Of a stretch of DNA of 28,111 bases, positions 7,015 to 28,111 are shown in pieces (positions within the stretch are counted from its first letter, which is position 1; each line of letters begins with the position of its first letter). Position numbers and translations under genes: made by a program. The stretch is from a virus: IMG/VR virus record IMGVR_UViG_3300009104_000097, positions 1 to 28,111 of that record. One strand, written 5' to 3'. The notes below the pieces were generated by a model. That model was not told where the DNA came from. It searched no databases and was given only the letters and a program-made list of their open reading frames with translations.

Positions 7015-10000
7015 ATGTCAATTAGAAATTATGGTTCAACTAATTATTTGCCTCGTCTGCAGGATTTGGTAGACCCAGAACAGTTGCTAATACAAGAGTT
7101 AGGAAATACGCCTGGTGTAAATTTACAGCAACCAAATAATCCTTATGCACTCGAAAGAGGAAGCCCTCCTTCTACGGATGATAGTGGAACTACGTCACAA
7201 CCTAGTAGAAGTGGAACAGATGATATAAACGAGATACTTAGAAGCAGTCCTCAAGGTGCTGAATTTTTACTTGGTCTAGGTGGAAGTGGAAGGAATAATG
7301 CATATGCTCTAGCCGCTAATCGTGCCGATAGAAGGATAACTAGTAATAGACAACGTGTCCAAGACTTAGTCAAGCTTGATCCTACCAATCCTCTCGCCGC
7401 TTTAGTTACCCTTCTTGGTGCTAGGGAAGAGCATCTTATTAATGAAGACTTGGTTGGTATAAGAAATGCCTATGGGAAACAAGAGCGTTTAACACAAGGC
7501 AGAAAGAAATTTTTTGAAGACCTTAAAAAATCTGGGCATGAAAATATATTTAAAGAGCTGGTTAATAAGAGGTTTGGTGGGGATACAGATAAGGCATGGA
7601 TGTTTTTGAAAGACCACCCTGAAGTATTGGCAGAGGAGTTTAATAGGCCGAACCCAGCTAAGATAAAAGATTATACATCAGTATTAAGGACATATCAGGA
7701 AATTGCAAAAGATATGGATTTTATAGGTACTGGCTTGATGGGTAAAGAGGCAGAAGAACAATTAAAAACAGGGATGAAGATTATAAAGAAATGGTTGGAC
7801 AGGCAAAAAGCACTTCATGATGGTCAGCTACCAGCTTCGGAAGAAAAGAATTTACAAAAACATGTGAGGAAGTTAGAAGAGCTTCGTGAAACTGTTGATA
7901 AAGCAAAAGATGAGAAAATTAAAAGCGGAAATTTTACACCTGAAAAAGCCAATCAACTTAGGGCTAGGTTGCAAGAGCTAAAGAACCTAGCTGAAAACAA
8001 CAAGAAATATGGTGGAACTACTTCCAACGCTGTCATAAGGGAAATAACAAGCCTTCAAACTGCACTAGAGATATATGATTCTAAGATAAAAGAAAAAGAC
8101 GATTTAATGCCTAAGAAGGGCGACCCAAAACTTAAACAGATGGAGATGGAAGAGGAAGTTACAGATAGGTGGGGAAAAGTTTTAGGTAATTTCAATCATA
8201 AATCTTTAGGATGGCCAGACTCTAAGAAGATAGAAAAAATAAATAATTCTATTATGTATTGGGATAAGCACCAACCGAAGACTACCCTTAAAGATGGAGT
8301 TGAAACAACAGATCATACTCAAATTCCAGATTGGGCTTCCAGATTGTTAAGCGGTGATGATTCTAATGCTATTGAAGATATTAAGCAAGCTCTTATGTTT
8401 GAAATTCCAGCAGATGGGACAGACCAAGATTGGGCTACAAGAGAACCGACTACTACAGCGACTCCGTTTCAAGAGGAAGTCCAAGGTGTTTTAGATTCTG
8501 TAGGTTTAGGTGATAAAGATGAGAAGTATCCATATGGTAAAAAATCTTCCCCACCGCCATTGAGTGATGCGTATACAGGGGATACGTCTAACGTGGTAAC
8601 AGGGGGTGTTCAAACACAAGATTTCAGAGACAAACAATCTCAAACTGATTCTGGCTGGGGTGGTACGGATGAGACTGCTAATATTTTTAACGACCCTGAA
8701 TATGGGAGAACAAGTAAGTATGTATCCCCAAATGCCTCTGAAAATATTAACAATGCTACCATTGATCTTCAAGACGTGGAGAAAAAAGTTAATGAGGTAA
8801 CAACGTATGTAAAGAAAAGCAGTAAAGTTATTGGCGATAAAGCTCTTGAAGGCTCTGCATCTATTACAAAAGGTACTATAAAAGCTGTTAATAAAGCGAA
8901 AGAGGAATGGGATTTCATTAAAAGAAAAACCATTAAAAAGAAAAATGAACTTTACAAAAAGCTTGCTCAGTTAAATAAGGAATGGAAAGAAGCTAATAAG
9001 TTATTTGGAATAGAGTTAAGCCCGATTAATATTCCAAGAGGAGGATTGCTTGGTGAAAGTAGCAAGATGGCTGGTGAGGGTAGACCTCTTACTGAAGAAG
9101 AAGCAAACAGGTCAATGGAATTTGGATGGGATAGATATAAAGATAATGAATACACTAGAACAGTTAAATATCTAGCCCCAGATGCTAGCCCATTAACTCC
9201 ATCTGATAAGAAAAAACAATCTGTCTCAGATAAGTTAAACAAAAAATATAACGAAATAATTAAGGAAGTGGAAGAGTTTGTTGATGAAACCAAAAAAAGT
9301 ATTAGTGGCTTTCGCTTTTCCTCTAACAATATGATCGAAGAAGCTCCTAAAGAATCTCCCAAACAATATTCTGCGGCGGAAATAGAAGCTATGCAGAACA
9401 AGGAAAGGGAAGAACGCATGGGTGGTATGGGTGGCCCTGATAAGTCGGGTAGTCCTGGAATGTCAGCGTCTGATATGTTTGATGCTGAAGTAAAAGCAGA
9501 CATAGATAGGGGAAGGGAAGAAGACAATTCAAATTTTATAGCTAATCTTGATGAAGATACTAAGTTTATACTTCAAACAGAGAATGCTCCGATGGATGCA
9601 AGGGCAGTCGGTTATAGGTTAAAACCTAAAATGAAAGACGGAAAGAAAGTTACAAAGAATGGCAAAGTTGTTATGGAACATAGATTAAGAGATGGAGAAA
9701 AAATACCTATCTCTTATGGGTTGATGCAGTTAACCCCCAAGACAGCTTATGCTACAGACTATTGGAAGGAGCTGGTTAAAAAAGAAAAGCCTGCCAATGA
9801 AGAAGAAAAGATAGAGCTTCTGTTTAATCCTAAACATAGCGTTGCGATATCTAAAGAGTTTCGTAAGAAATTGGAAGATAAAATAAGGGGAGCAGTTGCT
9901 AAAAAGAATCTTGCTTGGACTGAAGAGGATATTAGGATGGCTGTTGTAACAGCATATAATTGGAATGGAGAGAATTTCGGGAGTGTTATAAGGCGAGCTG

Positions 10001-10128
10001 GGATGGATGACTTTAAATCAACCTTGAGTAAGTGGGATACAATCCATAAGAAGAATAAAGAGAACCAAGTTCCTGATGAAACATGGAGCCAAATCCGAAG
10101 ATATAAAACCTTAAGAGGTTGGAAATAA
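7015..10128 (+). CDS. Large virion protein with C-terminal lytic transglycosylase domain
   Basis: A 1037-residue protein. Residues 1-700 are mostly helical and charged with coiled-coil stretches (around 270-370) and a linker rich in Ser, Thr, Pro and Gly (about 480-560). Residues about 850-1037 are an SLT-type transglycosylase domain: candidate catalytic Glu856 in ILQTENAP, the motif YGLMQLTPKTA at 901-911, and AYNWN near 981. Between Glu856 and GLMQ lies an extra Lys/Gly-rich hairpin-like segment of about 25 residues. The domain would cleave peptidoglycan locally during genome delivery, like T7 gp16, though there the domain is N-terminal. A duplicated motif, EYGRTSKYVSPNAS and EYTRTVKYLAPDAS, occurs 150 residues apart. 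AAGG lies ten bases before the ATG. Confidence 0.75.
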   Translation: MSIRNYGSTNYLPRLQDLVDPEQLLIQELGNTPGVNLQQPNNPYALERGSPPSTDDSGTTSQPSRSGTDDINEILRSSPQGAEFLLGLGGSGRNNAYALAANRADRRITSNRQRVQDLVKLDPTNPLAALVTLLGAREEHLINEDLVGIRNAYGKQERLTQGRKKFFEDLKKSGHENIFKELVNKRFGGDTDKAWMFLKDHPEVLAEEFNRPNPAKIKDYTSVLRTYQEIAKDMDFIGTGLMGKEAEEQLKTGMKIIKKWLDRQKALHDGQLPASEEKNLQKHVRKLEELRETVDKAKDEKIKSGNFTPEKANQLRARLQELKNLAENNKKYGGTTSNAVIREITSLQTALEIYDSKIKEKDDLMPKKGDPKLKQMEMEEEVTDRWGKVLGNFNHKSLGWPDSKKIEKINNSIMYWDKHQPKTTLKDGVETTDHTQIPDWASRLLSGDDSNAIEDIKQALMFEIPADGTDQDWATREPTTTATPFQEEVQGVLDSVGLGDKDEKYPYGKKSSPPPLSDAYTGDTSNVVTGGVQTQDFRDKQSQTDSGWGGTDETANIFNDPEYGRTSKYVSPNASENINNATIDLQDVEKKVNEVTTYVKKSSKVIGDKALEGSASITKGTIKAVNKAKEEWDFIKRKTIKKKNELYKKLAQLNKEWKEANKLFGIELSPINIPRGGLLGESSKMAGEGRPLTEEEANRSMEFGWDRYKDNEYTRTVKYLAPDASPLTPSDKKKQSVSDKLNKKYNEIIKEVEEFVDETKKSISGFRFSSNNMIEEAPKESPKQYSAAEIEAMQNKEREERMGGMGGPDKSGSPGMSASDMFDAEVKADIDRGREEDNSNFIANLDEDTKFILQTENAPMDARAVGYRLKPKMKDGKKVTKNGKVVMEHRLRDGEKIPISYGLMQLTPKTAYATDYWKELVKKEKPANEEEKIELLFNPKHSVAISKEFRKKLEDKIRGAVAKKNLAWTEEDIRMAVVTAYNWNGENFGSVIRRAGMDDFKSTLSKWDTIHKKNKENQVPDETWSQIRRYKTLRGWK

Positions 10129-16100: not shown

Positions 16101-17585
16101 AGAAGAGCAAAAGAAGGAAGAGACTACTATGATCGCATTGTTCTTGATAGGGTTATAGACATGAGTTTTAAATCTGATGAGGAAAGAACTAACTTTGAAA
16201 ATAACACTGCACTGCAAGGAGTTATTAATCAGGTAGACCCAAGCGGTAAAGTTGTTCGTTCTTATGTAAGGGAGTTCGTTGATGGGAAGGAGAGATTGAA
16301 AGAAATATCTCCAAGTATGGCTCAGGTAATAGATACTGGCGAAACAAGACACCCAATAACTGGGCGGCCTTACCCAACTTACTATGGTCATAAGCATTTT
16401 CCAGGTGATTTGGTTCACAAAGATGATCCTAAAAGACATATAAAATTAGAGGTTCATTCCTCTGGTAACACAAAAGAGGTTCGTGTTATAGCAGAGGACA
16501 GGACTATGGAAGGGGAGTTGGTTGGCACTATAGTCTTAACTAAAGATTCTGAGGGTTTAGAAAAAGTTAAGCACTACCATTTTAATACTGCTGCTGTGTA
16601 TAGGGCTAGGCTTACATTAGAAGAGGTGGACAATTTGATAGGTGACTCTCTTGGTAAATACGTTGCAGATCAGAGACAGTATTATACTGGGGTTGATCCT
16701 TTTGCTACTCAATGGGGTATTAAAAAATACTTAGGTTCTCCATCTAGAGGTGAGCCTGGATATGAAAGCTTTTACAAGCCAACTTCTGAACTCATAAAAG
16801 AGATTGAGTCTAAAGCACCGCCAGTAACACAGATAGGTGATGCCCCTATTAAATTAAAATATGACCCAAATTCTCCTATAGATTCTGATGATCGTAGGCT
16901 TGGTCTTGTGAGACAGGGTGGTGTTATGACCGACTCAATGAGAGAAGCATTCATCCAAAGGATGGGGATGGAGCAAGCTTATCCATTGAAGGTAATAGGT
17001 ATGAGATGGGATAGTGAACAAGAAAAATTTGTTGATGAATATGAATGGCCTACTACAACTTCAACTATTGATCCTCAGACGGGTAAAAAATATGCTATAG
17101 GTCAAGCTACTTTTGGTGGGCCGATGGGTATGGATAAATTAGAACCAGCTACATCAGAAGAGATAGTTCATGCCGCTAAGTTCTACTCTGACTTGGTAAA
17201 AGAGATGGAGGCTGAAGCTAAAAAACCAAGGGCTGAAAAAGTAATAAGTGAAAACAAAAAGGAAGCAATTAAAAGAACCGAGCAAGCTGTTAAGAACGCT
17301 GAAAATATGTTCAATAGTCTTGTAGCCGAACAAGAAAGATTGGAAAACACTAAAGGGTTGGGAGACTTGGATAAGCAAAAGCTTGCTGGTATTAAAAGGG
17401 TAACGGCTATGCCAAAAGCACAGCGAACAGCAGACGTTATAACATCTGCCCTTCTAGGCATGAATGAATCTGGGGAAAATGAAACACCCAATGATGATGC
17501 TCAAGTAGGTCAATCTCCGTTACGAAATCCTGTTAAAGACAATGTTAATGACGACATTATAAAACCTCCTTGTGAACTACTATAA
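10128..17585 (+). CDS. Giant putative ejection protein (2485 residues)
   Basis: I start at the ATG at 10128, which overlaps the preceding stop (TAATG) and has AAGAGG nine bases upstream; a TTG three codons earlier is also in frame. Residues about 130-450 contain several Gly/Ala-rich hydrophobic helices (FFGTVAGFGIEALG, TSGGLLLPAKMIAKK, AAYTAGIPSGLVVGV, AAVSGLVGGTTSGP) of the type seen in large internal virion or polyvalent proteins. Near 503-530, GDSFETIAKNNDVSLESI fits a LysM peptidoglycan-binding motif. Residues about 655-905 are low-complexity Lys/Ala/Glu/Pro, TolA-like. The remaining 1550 residues are mixed helix and strand with no catalytic motif I recognise. Position between a transglycosylase protein and an LPD38-like protein suggests it is packaged and ejected with DNA. 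That is inference. Confidence 0.65.
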   Translation: MVDSFSSIDTGRDTSLSSGFLDFTEEEKKRLEQFGYDVQGVKSAIDTGQLTKDDVIQVLDNKEWGLQQQAERKVQREEADMPEPQNRYLPASVDYQDVPQQQKGFSWDNFLSTNTGPIDAVVGAMGDTGEFFGTVAGFGIEALGRATNNPEIYKAGKWLKEQSVEKSKSFKDWGMDEEAKADALGPRSFFTYDDPNDWKPSGLGNFNLGTITQLFGSAVATSGGLLLPAKMIAKKLVKQGMSPKRAGMLGMGLTAGGAEGTMAASDAYDNVIEFANQNPEGIKNSPLYNDVRARITSQFPDASEQDLFDFIVDEVAESAAYTAGIPSGLVVGVTSVPMAKFLDKAGFWGRGGKKFEGVRKPWGQVLWGGAWREGAEEATQETNTQLWSNYSEYISGKSPDRLSFKGVPEAAVSGLVGGTTSGPVFSGYTNVGKMSQEEVDSRRVASLQQLGQQEEEAQSFIASAQRWDEGKQKFIGTSPFTTQGNEAYIGDSLEAIGLEFEQGDSFETIAKNNDVSLESITNLQKAIDLAKEEKQKKLPQETDDPYAQDADQRKVAKERKKIVDDDPPDDPSMEGFSETKKKIIRKFKKAYGVTTYDELKNELSDPNKNTWSYIQETFGKDASSKLQVNLSKNKIKGFSNKNKEGGSLFEAILAANEEAEAKPTVEKPKAEPKAKVAKTAEPKPTAEAPANLEVQQAEEALAKARKEFESFGRQAIADNKVSAGVDGINVDPDIKADWDRLDKAVLVAEKNLEEAKLKVKPDIERPEEEVLSEAEKKKIQKGINLRNKTHIPNAQKKIAELKSSLKKSENSKASKKKKAEAKERIDGEIKKYDDRIKSYKKKNKDEQAKLDASKPVTEKKADKKEPTKADKKPTEAKAKPEPKLKAKTDKEKKVGEALLNIVANVTKSDMINERIHQKNNPNKSLLMVVNHPFFGFDKKDAKREEIVNFLYAKAAEYRRANPTAIDKAKEEFHKKVLAASASETGQLSARELYATDGKYALVRGEKYDLLKEAYLNRIIAIREKWNKLKKGEKKDQEDNDFMTKWQMALETMSGQAGIVETKLSDGTFSYKPVFYGSKEHIRIERAEKSYIRSKLSKLIGPNWDTIRLFQIAYPDKGDPKEGRKPEPQYDDEIVDLAKMFISYHTPNQMLMDKLFKSVSDFDLRHPQSNLLYNVDAIPTNYIENKDGSVIFDVFGTEKGLIDPSPHLSTEDMDIMYTRILNRIDLLNQGKEVFLDPNADKIVNEFMGKDHKKGQGSIVYKGAGSSALSLKDAQDIKRLQDYANWLQAEYGTDKRKLKRIPYQQFASDEYYVRNFRRATKFLVGDPSRGGGSITKAKKRMREFINDKIKELEEFRSKQDIKVKSKEITRDKADKEISIKDSNLAKEIDSKLKGEMPAILSAYERYYNALRKDGFDVKNLKPNLFEDFTEEEFKLESEKVKQARTNMTNLLKEMFDEDNFIGAVGLFHRTGYAVDDEQRDIIAQLLEQHVMGEGNDEVLTAADYAVLNDELVSFGLESDADLVDVERAKQLQFRPGDYSPTREDSIVGGWRQKFVKKTKLKVLIDKEGLLDPDTDIDAIIESQPEEDWEILRAMVKAGHPIYKYKTVKTPLGVNDKGKRIFKTNRVAVEETDTEGNVLYEMKQSRVFIPETKTVIKQVAKIGDDGKIVVREVPSETIRNKMVTEVVYESKEMEVHTGRADPNAPLAWKQEYKIRYLEGNDKGKPAGTEEFVRAEDFPRDVYVKDLYVEKADQKKVEEIIYDKSLTTQERYLKLQKYYDKRKILSTQILDVKETNKRGYAVYKWINKGQRKKEQVLDKEETKRRGYDVYEEVESGIAIPFNMSRPTYEKVVEKVPTKNIRNEDVVDYKGHKMTTDKWISREAIGSDGQPIPQMEFVYEPQNVYMHTENPLRMSDELPPMQRALRMTQYSRAVLDSQNSGWRVVFSEMGRPTTIKRITGVPKHIMNEMKVKDEMTEEEVDFYSRRAIQKMTNEQSRRAKEGRDYYDRIVLDRVIDMSFKSDEERTNFENNTALQGVINQVDPSGKVVRSYVREFVDGKERLKEISPSMAQVIDTGETRHPITGRPYPTYYGHKHFPGDLVHKDDPKRHIKLEVHSSGNTKEVRVIAEDRTMEGELVGTIVLTKDSEGLEKVKHYHFNTAAVYRARLTLEEVDNLIGDSLGKYVADQRQYYTGVDPFATQWGIKKYLGSPSRGEPGYESFYKPTSELIKEIESKAPPVTQIGDAPIKLKYDPNSPIDSDDRRLGLVRQGGVMTDSMREAFIQRMGMEQAYPLKVIGMRWDSEQEKFVDEYEWPTTTSTIDPQTGKKYAIGQATFGGPMGMDKLEPATSEEIVHAAKFYSDLVKEMEAEAKKPRAEKVISENKKEAIKRTEQAVKNAENMFNSLVAEQERLENTKGLGDLDKQKLAGIKRVTAMPKAQRTADVITSALLGMNESGENETPNDDAQVGQSPLRNPVKDNVNDDIIKPPCELL

Positions 17586-20500
17586 TGGCTAAAAAAAAGA
17601 AATCAACATGCAGTAAGTGGGATAACGATGATGTTGTATGGAAGAGTGATGTCAGGTCAGATAACCAAAAGCATCACGAAGCAACAGATAAAGCAACTAA
17701 AGATCGTGGCGGTCTTTCTTGGGTAACTATGCAAAAGCATTTAACCGATAGGCTTGCCCCTATAAAGAAAGCTATTCGTGATAGTCTTCCAGCAGTTTGG
17801 GCTGAAAGAATTATCAGAAAGATGGAGGTTTCTACTGGTGGTTCTGCGATGGGTATGGTTGAAGCTCAAAAGCATTTGAGGAATATCTATGGTGATATGA
17901 AAGAAGGAGAAGAGTCTAACTTTAATGAAGTTGTGTTAGCTCTGCGTATTATTGCTATAGATAAGAACAAGGTTGCTGTTGCTAGGCGTGAGATAAAACA
18001 GTTAACTGGTGATGAGACAGGAGCGTTTAGGGTTTTTGATACTGGTAATTCAACAGAGCTTCGTATCTTAAGAAAGTTATTGAAGGATAAATCTTACACA
18101 CCAAAGAACAAAGGAAGCTATGTAACATTAAGTTTTGTTAAAGATAAGAATAACCCTAAGAAACAAAGCAAGATTCCAACAGAATTTTTAGATAGAGATA
18201 AAGCTATTCTTCATTCGTCTGGAGAGGTTGACAGAATACTAAGAGAAAGTGAGATACTTCATCCTGGAAATAAGGGTGCGGTAGAACAACAAGCTTTTCT
18301 TGATGAGATGAAAGAGAAAGACCCTACTGCTTATACAAGACTGCACAATAAAGCTGTTGAATACTTTAATGTTTATAAAGAGCAACTAGAAACTATGTAT
18401 CTAGAGGGTCTTATTACATCAGATGATTACCTTCATTTTAAATCTGTTGGTCATTATTCCCCAAGGCAGTACCTGAAATTTTTTGATCCAGACATTACAT
18501 TTGATAATCTTGCTGCAATAACAACTGGTAGTACAGGCTCTATTAATATGGATTCTGCTAATATTTTAAAAGAATATATTACCAAGTTGCATTTAAGGAT
18601 AGCTAGGAATAAAGCTAATGTGGAATTGTATCATGCTTCTAAAGCTAACGAAGTGCCAGGATTAATTAGCATTGTTGATGTAGATGCGGAAGAAAAAGTT
18701 GGTGACAACTTCAAGCTGATAAACGCATATGTTAATGGCAAGAAGTATAGAATGAAAATGCCATTAGAGTTTGGGAAAAGTTGGCTGGAATCTGAAAGTA
18801 CATTGGCTCATAGTACAGCTAAAATGCTTAGAACATGGTCTGGTGCTGACATTGTAAGAGCTGGGGCTACTGGGTATAATCCAGAGTTTGCTATTACTAA
18901 CTTGCCTCGTGACTTAATGTTTTCTTGGTTTAGAACTAGGGAGTATTCTAACTGGGTTCCAATGGCGATTCCTCAAATGGCAAAGAGAATGTGGGAAACT
19001 CGTAAAGATGTTTGGCATAGGGGGGAAGACCCAATAGGTGATGCCAGAGAATATCTAGAAGAGTATGGCATGATGGATTTCCTCACACAACAAGGGGAGT
19101 TTGGTGGTAGGGCATGGAAACATAACGAGAGTAAATCTCGGTGGCAGAAATTTAAAAACATGGCATCCTTTGTTGGTTCTAAGACTGAACTATGGGTAAG
19201 ATTAGCCTTGAGGAAGCAGGCTATTATGAATAGAGCAGCGAAGAACAATGGTGTTGTGACTCAGGAGATGAGAGAAGAAGCTACTTGGATAGCGAGAGGT
19301 TATTTAGATTTTTCTAAAGGTGGAAGTAGCGTAAAGGTTGCCGATACTGTTGTTCCGTATCTTAATGCTTCTATTATTGCGACTACAGGGTTGGCTGAAA
19401 CTTTGATGGGCAAGGGTGGTACTGGTTATCATACTCATGGTAGTAAGTATATTATTAATGAAGGGAATATTGTTGCATGGGGAAAGATGGCTCAGTTTTT
19501 TGTAATCATGACATCTTCTATTATGGCAAACTTAATCTATTGGCCTGAAGAATATGGGAAGATGGATGATAATGCTAGAGATTCAAACCTAATTATTCCA
19601 TTGCCGTTTCTGAAAGATAAAGATAAGGCTGGCAATAGTATAATGGGAATGTTTAAAGTTCCGCTAGATCAGGGGCAAACTATGGTTGCCAATATGGCAG
19701 GGGCTATGATGTCAGCTGCATTAAGAAGCATGGGATATGGTAATGGTGAGACAGTTTTAGATAAGTATGCCAACAGAAGAGTGAAAGTATATCGTGAGGG
19801 AATTTTGCAAGGTGTTCCAAATCTTTCCATGCCTCCCACAGTTAAAGCATTTCTAGGATACCTTAGTAATATAGATACATATGGGTGGAAACCTGTAGTC
19901 CCAGGTGAACCAAAAGATAATTTGGGTTCTGAATATTTAGGGAGAACTCCATTCGATCATCCATTCTTAAGCATGTCTGTTGATTGGCTTAATGAAAAAT
20001 TTCCTGAGTTCGGTGGGCTTATACCAGCAGAACCATTTTCTCCTGCTAGGATAGCATTTGTTTTTAATACATTTTTTGTTACCAGTAATTCTTTTGTCAA
20101 GCTTGTTGGTTCTATGTGGAACGCTGGCATTGGTGAGTTTAATGGATTGGAAAAAGAATTATTTGGTGATGAAGAACTGAATGATATTGATAGGAGAATT
20201 GGAGCCGACATAAGAGAGACTCTTAAAATACTTCCAGGTGTTCACAGGTTCTTTGAGATGACCCCTGGTGAAGACAGGGATGACATTGAAATTGGAAGAT
20301 TGGTAAGCACTAAAAACAATGAACAAGATGCAGAGATAAACGCAAATCTGTATGGGTATCTTGGCAAGTTGAATGAAGTTGATCCACCTCAAGGGAAGAC
20401 TCGTGGTCTTACTCCTGATGCTAACAGGTTAATTAAAAGAGCTACAGAATATGTGCGTAGTCTTGATATAACTGTGGATAAAAAAAGACGACTGATGAAT

Positions 20501-20773
20501 AGAATAATTGATGCTAAATCATACAAGGCATCTGTCGGTAAACTAAAGAACCCTCAGTTCTGGTATCATGTTGGAAGGGAAGGCGACCCTAGAACAAGAG
20601 CCGAAATGATTTTCCATAAGTGGAAGAAGCATCCAGAATTTCAGACTCAGTTACTGCGAGAGTTCAGAAGATTAAGAAGGGTTTCAAATGAGAAAACAAA
20701 ATTATATTTAAATGCGATGATAAGAAATCATCGTGGTGAAAGAGAAGTTAAATTTCCATCTAAAACATATTAG
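17585..20773 (+). CDS. Large putative ejection protein with LPD38-like region
   Basis: A 1062-residue protein whose ATG overlaps the previous stop (TAATG) without a Shine-Dalgarno; the upstream mRNA instead contains CCTCCTT, so translation is probably coupled. Residues 1-400 are charged and helical. From about 420 to 620 the sequence resembles large polyvalent protein-associated domain LPD38: GATGYNPEFAITNLPRDLMF at about 427-446, followed by a long helical stretch with TELWVRLALRKQAIMNRA and ARGYLDFSKGGSS. Hydrophobic helices follow (NASIIATTGLAETLMG, QFFVIMTSSIMANLIYW, VANMAGAMMSAALRSMG), then a basic C-terminus. LPD38-type regions occur in very large phage proteins thought to be delivered into the host. 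I infer an internal virion protein; the domain call is from memory of the family pattern. Confidence 0.6.
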   Translation: MAKKKKSTCSKWDNDDVVWKSDVRSDNQKHHEATDKATKDRGGLSWVTMQKHLTDRLAPIKKAIRDSLPAVWAERIIRKMEVSTGGSAMGMVEAQKHLRNIYGDMKEGEESNFNEVVLALRIIAIDKNKVAVARREIKQLTGDETGAFRVFDTGNSTELRILRKLLKDKSYTPKNKGSYVTLSFVKDKNNPKKQSKIPTEFLDRDKAILHSSGEVDRILRESEILHPGNKGAVEQQAFLDEMKEKDPTAYTRLHNKAVEYFNVYKEQLETMYLEGLITSDDYLHFKSVGHYSPRQYLKFFDPDITFDNLAAITTGSTGSINMDSANILKEYITKLHLRIARNKANVELYHASKANEVPGLISIVDVDAEEKVGDNFKLINAYVNGKKYRMKMPLEFGKSWLESESTLAHSTAKMLRTWSGADIVRAGATGYNPEFAITNLPRDLMFSWFRTREYSNWVPMAIPQMAKRMWETRKDVWHRGEDPIGDAREYLEEYGMMDFLTQQGEFGGRAWKHNESKSRWQKFKNMASFVGSKTELWVRLALRKQAIMNRAAKNNGVVTQEMREEATWIARGYLDFSKGGSSVKVADTVVPYLNASIIATTGLAETLMGKGGTGYHTHGSKYIINEGNIVAWGKMAQFFVIMTSSIMANLIYWPEEYGKMDDNARDSNLIIPLPFLKDKDKAGNSIMGMFKVPLDQGQTMVANMAGAMMSAALRSMGYGNGETVLDKYANRRVKVYREGILQGVPNLSMPPTVKAFLGYLSNIDTYGWKPVVPGEPKDNLGSEYLGRTPFDHPFLSMSVDWLNEKFPEFGGLIPAEPFSPARIAFVFNTFFVTSNSFVKLVGSMWNAGIGEFNGLEKELFGDEELNDIDRRIGADIRETLKILPGVHRFFEMTPGEDRDDIEIGRLVSTKNNEQDAEINANLYGYLGKLNEVDPPQGKTRGLTPDANRLIKRATEYVRSLDITVDKKRRLMNRIIDAKSYKASVGKLKNPQFWYHVGREGDPRTRAEMIFHKWKKHPEFQTQLLREFRRLRRVSNEKTKLYLNAMIRNHRGEREVKFPSKTY

Positions 20774-20775
20774 CA

Positions 20776-21654
20776 ATGAAGGGAATTGATGACTACATGA
20801 CGAAGGATGGTGTGCGTGTATTGCGTGTTCACTATTCTGCTGATGAAGACAAAGACCCTAACACTAAGGGCGGTGCTAACTGGATGGCTAAGTCTTTAAT
20901 AGGTTATCCTGGTGGTACAAGCGGTGCTAAGTGGCGAAGGGAAATGGAGATTGACTTCAATGCACAGGGTGGTCAGCTTGTCTTTTCATGTATGGATAAG
21001 CATAAAGAGAGAATATATATACCATCGTATGATGTAATACCAGAAAGATGGAAGCTGTATGGTGGGTTTGACTACGCAGGCAGGGGAACAACAGCCTTTA
21101 TGGTTGTTGCATACGACAAGATAAGTGATTCTTACTATGCAGTACATGAGTTTTACAAAAAGAAATCAGGATACATCGCAACATCTGAAGCAATTAAAAG
21201 CTATAAATATTTTGACAATCTAGAATGGATTGTTGCTGATCCTAGTATGTGGTCTAAGACACAGGAGCGTGGGGATGGTGGCGATCTGGTGAGCATGGCT
21301 CAACTGTTTAGTGAACAAGGCATTCATTTTCTCAAAGGAACAAGAGGTGGTGACACAGAATTTGCAGAACTTATTAACGAGAAAATGTGGAATGGTTTTG
21401 AAAAGAAGAACAAGAACTGGCAACCGAGATACAGGATAACCAAGTCTTGTATAAACCACTGGAATGAGATGTCTCAATGGCGTTATAATGAATGGACTAC
21501 TAGCACTGGTCAGAGTAGAAACTTAAAGGAAACAATGATAGACAAAAATAATCATAGCATTGATGCTGTTAAATATTTATTTAAGATGCTGTCCTCTAAC
21601 TGGATGGCTGATAAGGTGGACAGTTTTGATATGTCCAGACATGTTGTTAATTAA
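20776..21654 (+). CDS. Terminase large subunit, C-terminal nuclease half (separate gene)
   Basis: A 292-residue protein that starts two bases after the preceding gene and lacks any ATPase motif. It begins in the TerL inter-domain linker: VRVLRVHYSADEDKDP, then SGAKWRREMEIDFNAQGGQL, both typical of TerL just before the nuclease. The RNase H-like nuclease acidic residues are visible: Asp99 in YGGFDYAG, Asp155 in WIVADPSMW, Asp263 in NHSIDAVKY. It cuts concatemeric DNA during packaging. The matching ATPase half is encoded about 1.4 kb downstream at 23048, i.e. in reversed order. No frame upstream could extend it: an in-frame TAA occurs at 20761. No Shine-Dalgarno is visible, so translation may be coupled to the giant gene upstream. 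The first and post-stop regions share a 12-bp direct repeat. Confidence 0.85.
   Translation: MKGIDDYMTKDGVRVLRVHYSADEDKDPNTKGGANWMAKSLIGYPGGTSGAKWRREMEIDFNAQGGQLVFSCMDKHKERIYIPSYDVIPERWKLYGGFDYAGRGTTAFMVVAYDKISDSYYAVHEFYKKKSGYIATSEAIKSYKYFDNLEWIVADPSMWSKTQERGDGGDLVSMAQLFSEQGIHFLKGTRGGDTEFAELINEKMWNGFEKKNKNWQPRYRITKSCINHWNEMSQWRYNEWTTSTGQSRNLKETMIDKNNHSIDAVKYLFKMLSSNWMADKVDSFDMSRHVVN
20777..20788 (+). repeat. 12-bp direct repeat, left copy (start of terminase nuclease gene)
   Basis: TGAAGGGAATTG occurs here, covering codons 1-5 of the terminase nuclease gene, and again at 21682-21693, 28 bases after that gene's stop. The copies are 905 bases apart in the same orientation and bracket the gene. 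Reading frames differ in the two places, so shared protein function does not explain it. Confidence 0.6.
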
Positions 21655-21667
21655 GGTGGGATAATAA

Positions 21668-21826
21668 ATGGGTATGCCATTTGAAGGGAATTGCATCCAT
21701 CCAAGAACCAAGATCAAAAAGAATGGATCAGTGTTCTGCTTGGCTTGCCACCAGATAATTAAGGAGATTTTTATGTTACAGATAGACTCGAAAAAGAAAT
21801 CTAAACCTAAACCACCAAGATACTAG
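21668..21826 (+). CDS. 52-residue zinc-ribbon-like mini-protein
   Basis: A short frame in the gap after the terminase nuclease gene. AAGGTGGG lies just before the ATG. It reads MGMPFEGNCIHPRTKIKKNG and then SVFCLACHQIIKE, giving a C-x-x-H / C-x-x-C pattern (Cys9, His11 region; Cys24, Cys27, His28) that could hold one zinc ion, and it ends in a Lys/Pro-rich tail KKKSKPKPPRY. A second ATG at 21773 within the same frame has a strong AAGGAG seven bases before it and would make a 17-residue basic peptide alone, so two products are possible. Function unknown; a DNA- or protein-binding role is only a guess. Confidence 0.4.
   Translation: MGMPFEGNCIHPRTKIKKNGSVFCLACHQIIKEIFMLQIDSKKKSKPKPPRY
21682..21693 (+). 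repeat. 12-bp direct repeat, right copy (after terminase nuclease gene)
   Basis: Second copy of TGAAGGGAATTG, here inside codons 5-9 of the zinc-ribbon-like mini-gene. See the left copy at 20777. The repeat could be a scar of the event that placed the nuclease half here, or chance. Confidence 0.6.
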
Positions 21827-21835
21827 GAGAGTATT

Positions 21836-22042
21836 ATGAAAGAGCAAGGACTACCAGTAGAAAATTATGTTGCACCCAACACTTTGACCAATGGTGATGG
21901 GGAAGAGTTTGAAGCTAACATTATATGTTCACACGAAGGACACAAGAAGATGGATGATCGTGCGGCTAATGTTCATAACATTTCAACAGAGACTAGCAAC
22001 CACGCTCATCGTGTAGACATGCATGGAAGTTCAAAATACTAA
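21836..22042 (+). CDS. Small His-rich hypothetical protein
   Basis: A 68-residue protein with a good AGGAGA Shine-Dalgarno. It is acidic at the N-terminus and rich in His, Asn and Ser at the C-terminus (CSHEGHKKMDDRAANVHNIS, then NHAHRVDMHGSSKY); the single Cys and six His could bind a metal. No family recognised. It overlaps the next gene by 20 bases. It lies in the packaging gene cluster between the terminase nuclease and small-subunit genes, but nothing links it to packaging beyond position. Confidence 0.5.
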   Translation: MKEQGLPVENYVAPNTLTNGDGEEFEANIICSHEGHKKMDDRAANVHNISTETSNHAHRVDMHGSSKY

Positions 22043-22586
22043 GATATCCAATCACATTGGTGGTCTTGCTCTTCAGTTGAAGGGTAAGCATTACCCATGC
22101 GATAGTGTAATGGCATCAATGTTTCTTGGTAATGATGACCATACGAGTGCCTATGTTATAGCAGGTTGTCGTATGAGGCGAGGCGAGTATCATTTGTTTG
22201 ATGAAATGATGGGGCGTTTGTCTCCAAGTTTTATTTCTAAGATGAAAGATTTTCTGCGTAGCAATAAGGTAGAAAGGGTAATACTTTTATGTTCAGATGA
22301 AGACTTGCGGAATAGAATGAGAAAAGAAATTGGATGCAGGTTTATCTTTGAAGAAGAAAAGAGAAGAAAGAATGCCTCTGTAATTTTAAGGGAATGGTTT
22401 AGTAGGAATAAACCACAAACAGAAGAGCCTATTCTTAAGGTGTGGGGTGATTGCAGAGAAGCTGTTAAGTCTAACTACCCACCAGTTCGTGAGTGCATGG
22501 TAAAGCTTCTTGATTGGTATGATAAGAGAGCCAAGGCAGTTAATACAGTACCAAAAACTCTATCAATAAGGGCAGGATATGGATAA
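22023..22586 (+). CDS. Hypothetical alpha/beta protein in the packaging cluster
   Basis: A 187-residue protein overlapping both neighbours (20 bases before, 8 after). Alternating strands and helices are visible: TSAYVIAGCRMRRGEYHLFD, then ISKMKDFLRSNKVERVILLC, then RKNASVILREWFS, and near the end KVWGDCREAVKSNYPPVREC. The order (strand-turn-strand, helix, strand ending in an acidic SDED, then a C...I...Y helix) loosely resembles an RNase H-fold nuclease such as the terminase C-terminal domain, but I do not see the full acidic triad. It could be a diverged nuclease-fold protein or something unrelated. Placement immediately before the small-terminase gene suggests a packaging-related role. Confidence 0.5.
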   Translation: MEVQNTKISNHIGGLALQLKGKHYPCDSVMASMFLGNDDHTSAYVIAGCRMRRGEYHLFDEMMGRLSPSFISKMKDFLRSNKVERVILLCSDEDLRNRMRKEIGCRFIFEEEKRRKNASVILREWFSRNKPQTEEPILKVWGDCREAVKSNYPPVRECMVKLLDWYDKRAKAVNTVPKTLSIRAGYG

Positions 22587-23169
22587 GCAAGATGTAGAAA
22601 CTACAATGCTTGGTAAGAAATTTACTAAGCAAGATATTTTTATTGACCAGATAATTACCAATCCGTCTAAGAGTTGGATTCAGCTTGCTTTAAAATCTGG
22701 GTATGCTACCAAGTCTATCGACAAAACTGTTGGTAGATTAGCGAAAGACAAGGTGTTTCTTTCTAGGCTAGAGGATAGGAAGAGAGAGATACAGGCAAGG
22801 TTATTAGTTTCTGCTGATAAGGTAGCTGAAGAATACGCAAGGATAGCGTTCCTTGACCCTAAAGAATATATTGAATACACCCAAGATGGCGGTGTAGTTT
22901 CTAAAAATTCTGGTCAGGTTGACCTAAGACCTGTAGTTGAGATACAGGAAAGCAGATCAGGCAAGGGTTCTAATGGAAAGAATACCATTACCTTAAAGTT
23001 TCATGATAAGATGGATGCACTAAAAGCATTAAGGGAGATGTTCGGATATGACAAACCAGCTAAGCACGCTCACCTCGTTGCAGGGAGTGGACAAGGAATT
23101 GATTCAAAGAAAATTGAGTCAGCTATCTTCGGACTCCTTGGAGGAACTACACCGCCTACTGCTAATTAA
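22579..23169 (+). CDS. Terminase small subunit
   Basis: A 196-residue protein fitting the Terminase_2 style small subunit. Residues about 12-60 contain the DNA-binding helix-turn-helix-like region (FIDQIITNPSKSWIQLALKS, then GYATKSIDKTVGRLAKD, where GYA..SI. is the typical aGYs motif). A helical segment follows (ADKVAEEYARIAFLDPKEYI), then strands and KFHDKMDALKALREMFGYDK, a common closing motif of the family. It would recognise the packaging start site and load the large subunit. The start overlaps the preceding gene by 8 bases, and the last 122 bases overlap the ATPase-half gene in a different frame. Confidence 0.75.
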   Translation: MDKQDVETTMLGKKFTKQDIFIDQIITNPSKSWIQLALKSGYATKSIDKTVGRLAKDKVFLSRLEDRKREIQARLLVSADKVAEEYARIAFLDPKEYIEYTQDGGVVSKNSGQVDLRPVVEIQESRSGKGSNGKNTITLKFHDKMDALKALREMFGYDKPAKHAHLVAGSGQGIDSKKIESAIFGLLGGTTPPTAN

Positions 23170-23770
23170 AAATTGGTCAGAGCATCCAAACAATTTTATA
23201 TTTTCTGGTTATGTTAAGACAAAAGATGAACATGATGCAGACAATCCTGTTAAACCATTCCCAGATAAACCCTACCTAAGAGAAGTAATAGATGTAGTCC
23301 ATAATTCTGACAGGTTATTTATACCCAAGAGCAGACAGATAAGAATGTCTTGGGTCATGGTACTGTATGCTTTATGGGTTGCTTTATTTTTCCCACATCA
23401 ATCCATCTTTATACAATCCAAGAAGGAAGAAGATGCGGCCGCTCTAGTATTTGACAAGAAGATAGAGAACTCACGAATGAGTTTTGTTTACTTTCATCTA
23501 CCAGATTGGCTAAAGGCAATGGTTCCTATTGATACTAGCTATGCCAAAATAAGATTTGCCAATGGCAGTATTGTATGGGGGATACCAGAAGGTGGGCATA
23601 TCATTAGATCGCACACTGCTAGTCTGGTTATATCAGATGAGTGTGCATTCCAACCAGAGTTTGAATCAGCATATACAGCAGCGATTCCTATGGCTAAAAA
23701 GATTATAGGATTAAGCTCTGCATCTGGTGGAACTTTCTTTGGGGATATAGTGTGCGAAGTAATTCAGTAA
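23048..23770 (+). CDS. Terminase large subunit, N-terminal ATPase half (separate gene)
   Basis: A 240-residue protein with the TerL packaging ATPase only. Motifs: FSGYVKTKDEHD.DNPVKPFP near 52-72, Walker A-like PKSRQIRMSW at 93-102 (Arg99 where Gly is usual), Walker B with catalytic Glu in LVISDE at 193-198, and the coupling motif GLSSASGGTFF at 221-231. It stops 10 residues after that (DIVCEVIQ), exactly in the linker that normally leads into the nuclease domain; that domain is the gene at 20776. It must therefore work with the separate nuclease polypeptide. It starts inside the small-subunit gene (122-base overlap), and its last 7 bases overlap the convergent M15 peptidase gene. Confidence 0.85.
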   Translation: MTNQLSTLTSLQGVDKELIQRKLSQLSSDSLEELHRLLLIKNWSEHPNNFIFSGYVKTKDEHDADNPVKPFPDKPYLREVIDVVHNSDRLFIPKSRQIRMSWVMVLYALWVALFFPHQSIFIQSKKEEDAAALVFDKKIENSRMSFVYFHLPDWLKAMVPIDTSYAKIRFANGSIVWGIPEGGHIIRSHTASLVISDECAFQPEFESAYTAAIPMAKKIIGLSSASGGTFFGDIVCEVIQ

Positions 23771-24135
23771 ATCCATGTCAACATTTGTGACTTGTCTTTA
23801 TCTACATCAACATGAATGAAGTTGTCCTTGCCAGAGATACCAATGCGTTTAAAAAGCTGATGCTTGAATATTAAATCCAGTAGGACGTACCTTTCTCTGC
23901 TACTCTTTGCTGAGATATCTGCCGCTTCCCCTTTAATATGAGAACTGGTAGGTCGAGATATAGAAATTGGATGTTCTGGACATCTATATCCTGACGTAAT
24001 AATGATGGGTAATCCATACAGTTCACGCAACCTGTCTAACTTTTCTACTAACTCAAGTTTAATTTTCCCCTTACCACTACCACAATGTTGGCAAGCAAAT
24101 TCTCTTGGGTTAAAATATTTGATATCATCCCACAT
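23764..24135 (-). CDS. M15-family peptidase, candidate endolysin
   Basis: A 123-residue protein of Peptidase_M15_3 style, close to the usual length for the bare domain. Zinc ligands are visible: His66 and Asp73 in SSHIKGEAADIS, and His108 in FIHVDVD. The upstream features YFNPREFACQHCG and IIITSGYRCPEH are typical of phage M15 enzymes. It would cut peptide cross-links in peptidoglycan (D-Ala-D-Ala or L-Ala-D-Glu type specificity cannot be told). AGGAGA lies about six bases before the ATG. It is the last gene of the minus-strand operon, far from the membrane-protein cluster at 2119-3895, so the endolysin and holin/spanin candidates are on opposite strands. No signal peptide, so a holin is needed. 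Confidence 0.8.
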   Translation of the reverse strand: MWDDIKYFNPREFACQHCGSGKGKIKLELVEKLDRLRELYGLPIIITSGYRCPEHPISISRPTSSHIKGEAADISAKSSRERYVLLDLIFKHQLFKRIGISGKDNFIHVDVDKDKSQMLTWIY

Positions 24136-27229: not shown

Positions 27230-27587
27230 TTAGCATCTCCTTTCTATATTGTTCTAATCTTAACTGCTCCTTCTGTTGCTGTACTCTTCGTACCTCAGAT
27301 AGAGAACCGAAGGTTGCTGCTTTGGTACTGTTCAATCTCATAGTTTGAATAGCATCAAACCATTTGATAAAACCTGGAATGTTCTTGGCGTTCTGCAACC
27401 AAGGGTCTTTACACTCAAGAAGGAACTTGAATGTATCAACCAGATTCTCATAACCTACTGCGGTAGCAAGAGCATTGATGTTTCTACCTTGTTCTTGGTA
27501 GGCTTTATTGCTATGAGGCACACCAAAATGTTCCTCGTATATAGCTTTCAAGTCACCAATGATTTCTCCTGCTGTCTTCTTGGTCAT
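27222..27587 (-). CDS. Hypothetical protein upstream of helicase, possible replication accessory
   Basis: A 121-residue helical, charged protein with a very strong GAGGAGG Shine-Dalgarno inside the end of the preceding methyltransferase gene. Its stop and the DnaB start overlap. Features: an N-terminal helix (AGEIIGDLKAIYEEHFG), a middle reading GYENLVDTFKFLLECKDPWL with IPGFIKWFDAI, and a Gln/Arg-rich end (VQQQKEQLRLEQYRKEML). Phage helicase loaders and DnaD-like proteins often sit directly upstream of the helicase and end in such helices, but no diagnostic motif is seen, so this is only a candidate loader. Confidence 0.55.
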   Translation of the reverse strand: MTKKTAGEIIGDLKAIYEEHFGVPHSNKAYQEQGRNINALATAVGYENLVDTFKFLLECKDPWLQNAKNIPGFIKWFDAIQTMRLNSTKAATFGSLSEVRRVQQQKEQLRLEQYRKEMLNE

Positions 27588-28111
27588 TAGTCCTCCTCAT
27601 AAAAATCTAAGTTTCGTTGACTAAATCTTTTCATACTTATATCTATATAATCTTGGTTCAATTCTATTCCAATCACCTTCCTTCCTAGTTTGACAGCCAT
27701 AACTCCAGTAGTACCTGACCCCCAGAAAGGATCAAGCACCGTGTCACCTACCTTACTACCTGCCTTGATACAGTATTCTGGTAGCTTGGGTGGGAATACA
27801 GCAAAGTGTGCCTCACTGTATGGCTTGAGGTTAATATTCCATACATCTCTTTTGTTTCTAAACTCACCAGTATTTGTATTGATTGAGTTCATTGAAGTGC
27901 CACGCCTTGCATCTGGACGTTCACCTCTGTTATCCCCTGCATATAAAGCACGTTCTTGCAATGCTTCATAGTCAAAGTAATACTGTCTACTCTTGGATAG
28001 TAAAAAGATATACTCATGTGACTTAGTGCATCTATCTTTGACAGGCTCTGGCATAGCGTTTGGTTTATTCCATATGATGTCCTGCCTCAGATACCACCCA
28101 TCATTCCTTAA
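27587..28111 (-). CDS. DNA methyltransferase (N4/N6 type), 5' end cut by window
   Basis: The frame is open to the right edge, so the gene continues outside; an ATG at 28054 would start in the middle of a conserved block. The visible 174 residues begin [20 protein letters not shown] and [14 protein letters not shown], typical of the DNA_methylase (PF01555) family between the catalytic motif and the target region. The SAM-binding end is [20 protein letters not shown], then [10 protein letters not shown]. Since the SAM motif comes last and the catalytic (D/N)PPY motif must lie earlier, outside the window, it is a beta-type enzyme. It methylates adenine (N6) or cytosine (N4), probably to protect phage DNA or mark it. 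It is the most upstream visible gene of the operon; the stop overlaps the next start (TAATG). Confidence 0.85.

What the first reader, a model, noticed from the sequence alone, without database searches (positions are those of the whole stretch)
20776..23770. Large terminase split into two genes in reversed order
The ATPase half (23048-23770) ends in the linker just after the coupling motif, and the nuclease half (20776-21654) begins in the same linker, with nothing obviously missing: together they give 532 residues and all motifs (Walker A/B, SSAS coupling motif, Asp99/155/263). But the nuclease gene is about 1.4 kb upstream of the ATPase gene, with a mini-gene, two unknown genes and the small subunit between them. 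Simple interruption by an intron, intein or homing gene keeps N before C, so a circular permutation (tandem duplication of the terminase block followed by loss of the outer halves) or a transfer of the nuclease half fits better. It implies a motor whose ATPase and nuclease assemble in trans. Splits of terminase genes are known; this order is one I do not recall.
Basis: partly seen in the sequence, partly recalled or inferred. Interest (0 to 1): 0.75.

Follow-up and report, generated by a model that had tools for sequence, protein, structure and literature searches.

The report
Packaging motor made from separate genes
A whole lineage of uncultured phages makes its DNA-packaging enzyme as two separate proteins, with the DNA-cutting half encoded before the ATP-burning half, so the two halves most likely work together without ever having been one chain.

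Summary
20776-21654 encodes a TerL nuclease domain (NUC) and 23048-23770 a TerL ATPase domain. The order NUC, u187, TerS, ATPase recurs in 26 distinct sequence pairs from independent IMG/VR contigs, down to about 47% ATPase identity, and forms one clade (support 100/99). Both halves keep their motifs and are under purifying selection (dN/dS about 0.03-0.10).

The proposed origin needs correcting. 34 more distant relatives already carry TerL as two genes cut at the same linker, in normal order (ATPase, NUC, usually then portal); three are fused. So the split most likely came first and the reversed order was a later, single relocation. A circular permutation of an intact gene is not needed. No intron was found and a convergent gene abuts the ATPase stop, so two proteins acting in trans is the likeliest reading (inferred, not shown).

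Unexpected addition: the intervening gene u187 (22023-22586) has a predicted RNase H fold closest to TerL nuclease domains and was found only in reversed-order genomes. It may be a second, perhaps vestigial, nuclease-like packaging subunit.

The parts
20776..21654 (+). TerL nuclease domain as a separate gene (NUC, 292 aa; Asp triad D99, D155, D263)
   Evidence: phrog_5653 1.6e-8; SPP1 gp2 nuclease 2wbn 1e-4; AF2 model matches P22 TerL nuclease 4dkw 3.4e-8; triad invariant
23048..23770 (+). TerL ATPase domain as a separate gene (240 aa; deviant Walker A with K94, Walker B D197-E198, coupling motif S223-S-A)
   Evidence: phrog_5989 1.2e-11 and phrog_2 3.1e-11; alignment A3
22579..23169 (+). Terminase small subunit (TerS, 196 aa); its last 122 nt overlap the ATPase gene in another frame
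   Evidence: PF03592 Terminase_2 5.8e-12; phrog_51 3.8e-12
22023..22586 (+). u187: stand-alone RNase H-like protein with a TerL-nuclease-like predicted fold, found only in reversed-order genomes
   Evidence: AF2 pLDDT 76; Foldseek PDB: PhiV-1 TerL 5.0e-6, SPP1 gp2 nuclease 1.0e-4; BFVD hits mostly TerL; 45 loci, all in the reversed clade
21836..22042 (+). Small gene of 68 aa, function unknown, present in the closer relatives only
   Evidence: ORF; tblastn hits in the nearer part of the clade
21668..21826 (+). Mini-gene of 52 aa; found only in near-identical contigs
   Evidence: ORF; tblastn
17585..20773 (+). Large gene of 1,062 aa directly upstream; NUC starts 2 nt after its stop
   Evidence: ORF and sequence; same neighbour in the relatives that cover the place
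23764..24135 (-). Convergent M15 peptidase (endolysin) gene that overlaps the ATPase stop, leaving no room for a split intron half
   Evidence: PF08291 6.4e-18; coordinates

Best explanation
The phage makes TerL as two proteins. The ATPase protein (Walker A and B, coupling motif) and the nuclease protein (RNase H-like, Asp triad) come from separate genes and assemble on the portal as a two-chain equivalent of the usual TerL: TerS binds the DNA, the ATPase ring pumps it, and the nuclease, held by non-covalent contacts, cuts at start and end. Origin in two steps. First, an ancestor of a large group of phages split TerL inside the short interdomain linker, probably by a frameshift or stop that left a stop/start overlap, giving TerS, ATPase, NUC, portal. 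Second, once, in the ancestor of the window's clade, the terminase genes came to lie at the end of the late operon, away from portal, with NUC upstream of TerS and ATPase and with the TerL-nuclease-like gene u187 between. Shown: two genes, their homology, conservation and order, one reversed clade, and the same split outside it. Inferred: assembly in trans, the order of the two steps, and any role of u187.
For: Homology and intact motifs of both halves. 26 distinct reversed pairs, 34 normal-order split pairs, 3 fused. One reversed clade in the ATPase, NUC and concatenated trees. dN/dS 0.03-0.08 for NUC and 0.04-0.10 for the ATPase. Fused L110 aligns end to end, linker only about 10 aa. Stop/start overlaps in L054 and L117. 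Portal follows NUC in most non-reversed relatives, and is about 19 kb away from the ATPase in the reversed 52-kb contig G003. No intron, convergent gene at the ATPase stop. No other TerL in the contigs of 35-52 kb.
Against: No direct evidence that the two proteins bind each other; they could not be co-folded here. The deep forks of the tree are only moderately supported, so split-before-reversal is likely, not proven. Fused L110 nests among split genes, so fission and fusion may have happened several times. All data are metagenome assemblies without reads; no genome of the clade is proven complete.
Confidence: 0.8

Rival explanations
1. One reading: an intact terL block was tandemly duplicated and the outer halves were lost, making split and reversed order in one process.
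For: It gives the right order, NUC before TerS-ATPase, in one step (inference). Duplication and loss could also have moved an already separate NUC gene.
Against: The same split exists in normal order in 34 pairs outside the clade, on both sides of it in the concatenated tree. No remnant of a second TerS or ATPase was found around NUC.
Confidence: 0.12
2. The two pieces are rejoined as one chain, by trans-splicing of a split intron or by a split intein.
For: terL genes split by group I introns that are spliced are known in Jug phages (PMC12363816), in N-before-C order.
Against: No Rfam match to an intron in 20-25 kb. The ATPase stop overlaps a convergent gene and NUC starts 2 nt after the preceding stop. 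Compared with fused L110 neither half carries extra sequence. Each half has its own conserved start and end in the clade.
Confidence: 0.03
3. Assembly error or dead remnants, with an intact terL elsewhere in the genome.
For: The window is a partial record (28 kb) and no reads are available.
Against: The same order in 26 distinct pairs on independent contigs, purifying selection on both halves, and no other TerL in three contigs of 35-52 kb by four searches.
Confidence: 0.02

Closest known systems
Canonical single-chain phage TerL (T4 gp17, P22, SPP1 gp2, D6E)
   Same: Same two domains, same motifs, same fold of the nuclease
   Different: Here two genes, in reversed order, with a deviant Walker A; the about 12-residue linker of D6E (PMC5727402) is where the chain is cut
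Parabacteroides phage phiPDS1 (PMC10773633)
   Same: The two TerL domains are annotated as two CDS
   Different: The authors suspected a codon table or assembly problem; no reversed order is reported
Jug phages with terL split by group I introns (PMC12363816)
   Same: terL in 2-3 fragments
   Different: Fragments in N-to-C order and rejoined by splicing; here no intron and reversed order
Normal-order split TerL of uncultured phages (for example L049-L057, L087, L109)
   Same: Homologous halves, cut at the same linker
   Different: ATPase before NUC, usually followed by portal; no u187
phi29 gp16 with a vestigial nuclease domain (PMC7672431)
   Same: Precedent for a TerL-nuclease fold kept in a packaging motor without nuclease activity; a possible model for u187
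   Different: In gp16 it is fused to the ATPase and there is no separate active nuclease

Membership tests
Phage TerL (large terminase) | P-loop ATPase with Walker A, Walker B and coupling motif | tested here: met
   Invariant K94-S-R (deviant Walker A), D197-E198, S223-S-A in 25 sequences; PHROG TerL hits
Phage TerL (large terminase) | RNase H-like nuclease with an acidic triad | tested here: met
   D99, D155, D263 invariant; SPP1 gp2 by sequence; P22, D6E and SPP1 by fold
Phage TerL (large terminase) | Both domains in one chain, ATPase N-terminal | tested here: not met
   Two genes, nuclease first, 1,393 nt apart; recurs in 26 distinct pairs
Phage TerL (large terminase) | Motor ring on the portal that pumps and cuts DNA | not testable with these tools
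   Needs biochemistry or co-folding of several chains
Intron-split terL | Intron RNA at the break and N-to-C order of the pieces | tested here: not met
   No Rfam intron; reversed order
TerL nuclease domain (for u187) | RNase H-like fold closest to TerL nuclease | tested here: met
   AF2 pLDDT 76; Foldseek PDB and BFVD
TerL nuclease domain (for u187) | Sequence homology to TerL nuclease | tested here: inconclusive
   hhalign E 0.0046, score 26.5 against at most 18.5 in 30 shuffles; BLASTP, a smaller profile and PHROGs found none
TerL nuclease domain (for u187) | Conserved acidic triad | tested here: inconclusive
   D38 invariant; position 92 is N in some; the helix-C acid at 157 is missing in L086 and L108

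The most novel reading that the evidence does not exclude
A packaging motor whose TerL functions are spread over three proteins: an ATPase, a free active nuclease, and u187, a second TerL-nuclease-like subunit that takes the structural place of the covalently attached nuclease domain on the ATPase ring. The 'motor part' and 'cutter' roles that one domain has in other phages would then be separate proteins.
Probability: 0.3. Interest if true: 0.8.

Novelty: new variant of a known kind. Interest (0 to 1): 0.6.

Why it matters
TerL is generally treated as one chain with two domains (PMC7824862 calls the attached nuclease domain universal in tailed phages), and motor models differ on what the attached nuclease domain does during translocation. 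A natural lineage with the halves far apart and in reverse order implies that the covalent link is dispensable and provides separate proteins with which to test what the link does. It also warns annotators that split terL is common in uncultured phages and need not be an assembly error.

Tried and rejected
u187 against NUC by sequence: BLASTP nothing; first profile comparison 0.2% probability; a family-wide NUC profile gave score 26.5, E 0.0046, against at most 18.5 in 30 column shuffles, in a register that fits the fold: suggestive only. u187 in PHROGs, PDB sequences and isolated phages: nothing convincing. Isolated phages hold no close relative of either half; the best nuclease matches lie in fused TerL genes (ctEqG8 from Manatee Spring, Cellulosimicrobium phage DS1, Wollypog). 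Introns: none. A 212-aa gene in L106 that looked u187-like by eye did not match the profile. Literature searches for a reversed split terL found none. Joint folding of the halves could not be run. One search failed on wrong coordinates and was repeated.

Full report
What is there. 20776-21654 (+) encodes 292 aa and 23048-23770 (+) encodes 240 aa, together 532 aa. The 1,393 nt between them hold a 52-aa mini-gene, a 68-aa gene, a 187-aa gene (u187) and TerS, whose last 122 nt overlap the ATPase gene in another frame. The first protein matches TerL families in PHROGs (1.6e-8), the second TerL families (1.2e-11 and 3.1e-11), and 22579-23169 matches TerS (PF03592, 5.8e-12). A profile of the nuclease hits the SPP1 gp2 nuclease domain (2wbn, 1e-4) with the KDNHxID motif aligned. 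Its AlphaFold2 model (pLDDT 71) matches the P22 TerL nuclease domain (3.4e-8), D6E TerL and SPP1 gp2.

Motifs. In 27 aligned nucleases D99, D155 and D263 are invariant. In 25 aligned ATPases K94-S-R, D197-E198 and S223-S-A are invariant. Walker A is not GK[ST] but begins with the lysine. Deviant Walker A motifs in TerL have been described (Mitchell and Rao 2004, in the reference list of PMC5727402); the likeness to lambda gpA K76 is from my own knowledge.

Not an artefact. The window is a whole IMG/VR record of 28,111 bases. Scans of IMG/VR with each half returned dozens of contigs with NUC, u187, TerS, ATPase in this order. After removal of identical pairs there are 26 reversed-order pairs, 34 split pairs in normal order and 3 fused genes. 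Both halves are under strong purifying selection: dN/dS 0.03-0.08 for NUC and 0.04-0.10 for the ATPase. Three longer relatives (35, 40 and 52 kb) have one NUC and one ATPase each and no other TerL by the profiles used.

Which came first. In the more distant relatives the halves are mostly separate genes, but in the order ATPase, NUC, often with a stop/start overlap (ATGA in L054, GTGA in L117) or with up to 1,172 nt between the matched parts. In most of them, and in all three fused ones, a portal gene follows (portal identity). L087 shows TerS, ATPase, NUC. In the 52-kb reversed relative G003 the portal (same family, 1.5e-213) lies about 19 kb from the ATPase. The reversed sequences form one clade in the ATPase tree, in the NUC tree and in a concatenated tree (100/99), with normal-order split genes on both sides of it. 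The split thus most likely predates the reversal, and a single relocation explains the order. The deep forks have modest support, so this polarity is likely, not proven. The fused L110 nests among split genes, which suggests that fission and fusion are both easy.

Nothing is missing. L110, a natural fused relative of 593 aa, aligns end to end with window ATPase+NUC; the window pair lacks only about 10 linker residues. In D6E TerL the linker has 12 residues (PMC5727402).

No rejoining. Rfam finds no intron between 20 and 25 kb. The ATPase stop overlaps a convergent M15 peptidase gene, and NUC starts 2 nt after the preceding stop. Neither protein has extra sequence that could be an intein half. 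Two separate proteins acting in trans is the simplest reading; it is inferred, not shown.

The surprise. u187 lies between NUC and TerS in the reversed-order contigs that cover the place, and was not found in the others; all 45 loci found with it belong to the reversed clade. Its AlphaFold2 model (pLDDT 76) has the RNase H order of strands and helices. The best solved matches are PhiV-1 TerL (5.0e-6) and SPP1 gp2 nuclease (1.0e-4), with RuvC and the HCMV terminase nuclease close behind; the named BFVD matches are mostly TerL. Sequence support for kinship with NUC is weak but above shuffled controls. The putative active site is only partly kept: D38 invariant, position 92 N in some, the helix-C acid lost in L086 and L108. 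A structural or regulatory role like that of the vestigial nuclease domain of phi29 gp16 (PMC7672431) is possible, and so is a second nuclease. This part is a hypothesis.

Comparison with what is known. A TerL split into two CDS has been reported for phiPDS1, where the authors suspected a codon table or an assembly problem (PMC10773633), and intron-split, spliced terL in Jug phages (PMC12363816). I found no report of the reversed order or of a stand-alone TerL-nuclease-like partner (ten literature searches; most subscription journals are not covered). I rate it a new variant of a known kind.

Noticed in passing
23048-23169: The first about 40 residues of the ATPase are encoded inside the end of TerS in another frame. 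This N-terminal extension is conserved in the reversed clade and shorter or absent in the normal-order relatives L049-L057.
   Followed up: partly
L110:2786-4564: A fused TerL of 593 aa nested among split ones in the trees: a re-fusion, or several independent splits.
   Followed up: partly
L057:9305-9766: A 153-aa ORF between the ATPase and NUC genes in a normal-order relative; by eye it looks phospholipase A2-like, but PHROGs has no match. Unrelated genes seem tolerated between the halves.
   Followed up: partly
L106:7215-7853: A 212-aa gene a little downstream of NUC that looks RNase H-like by eye (GEDYH, FRVLDEF); the profile comparison with u187 found nothing.
   Followed up: partly
L090, L155: In L090 the NUC match, and in L155 the ATPase match, is broken over two reading frames: frameshifts, sequencing errors or further splits.
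   Followed up: no
27587-28054 (-) and 7015-10128 (+): A DNA methylase (N6_N4_Mtase, 1.6e-31), and a large structural-region protein with a sub-threshold transglycosylase SLT match.
   Followed up: no
G003 (L160 start, L162 end): The first and last roughly 130 bases of this 52,535-base contig are nearly identical: either a closed genome or a repeated domain in a tail gene.
   Followed up: partly
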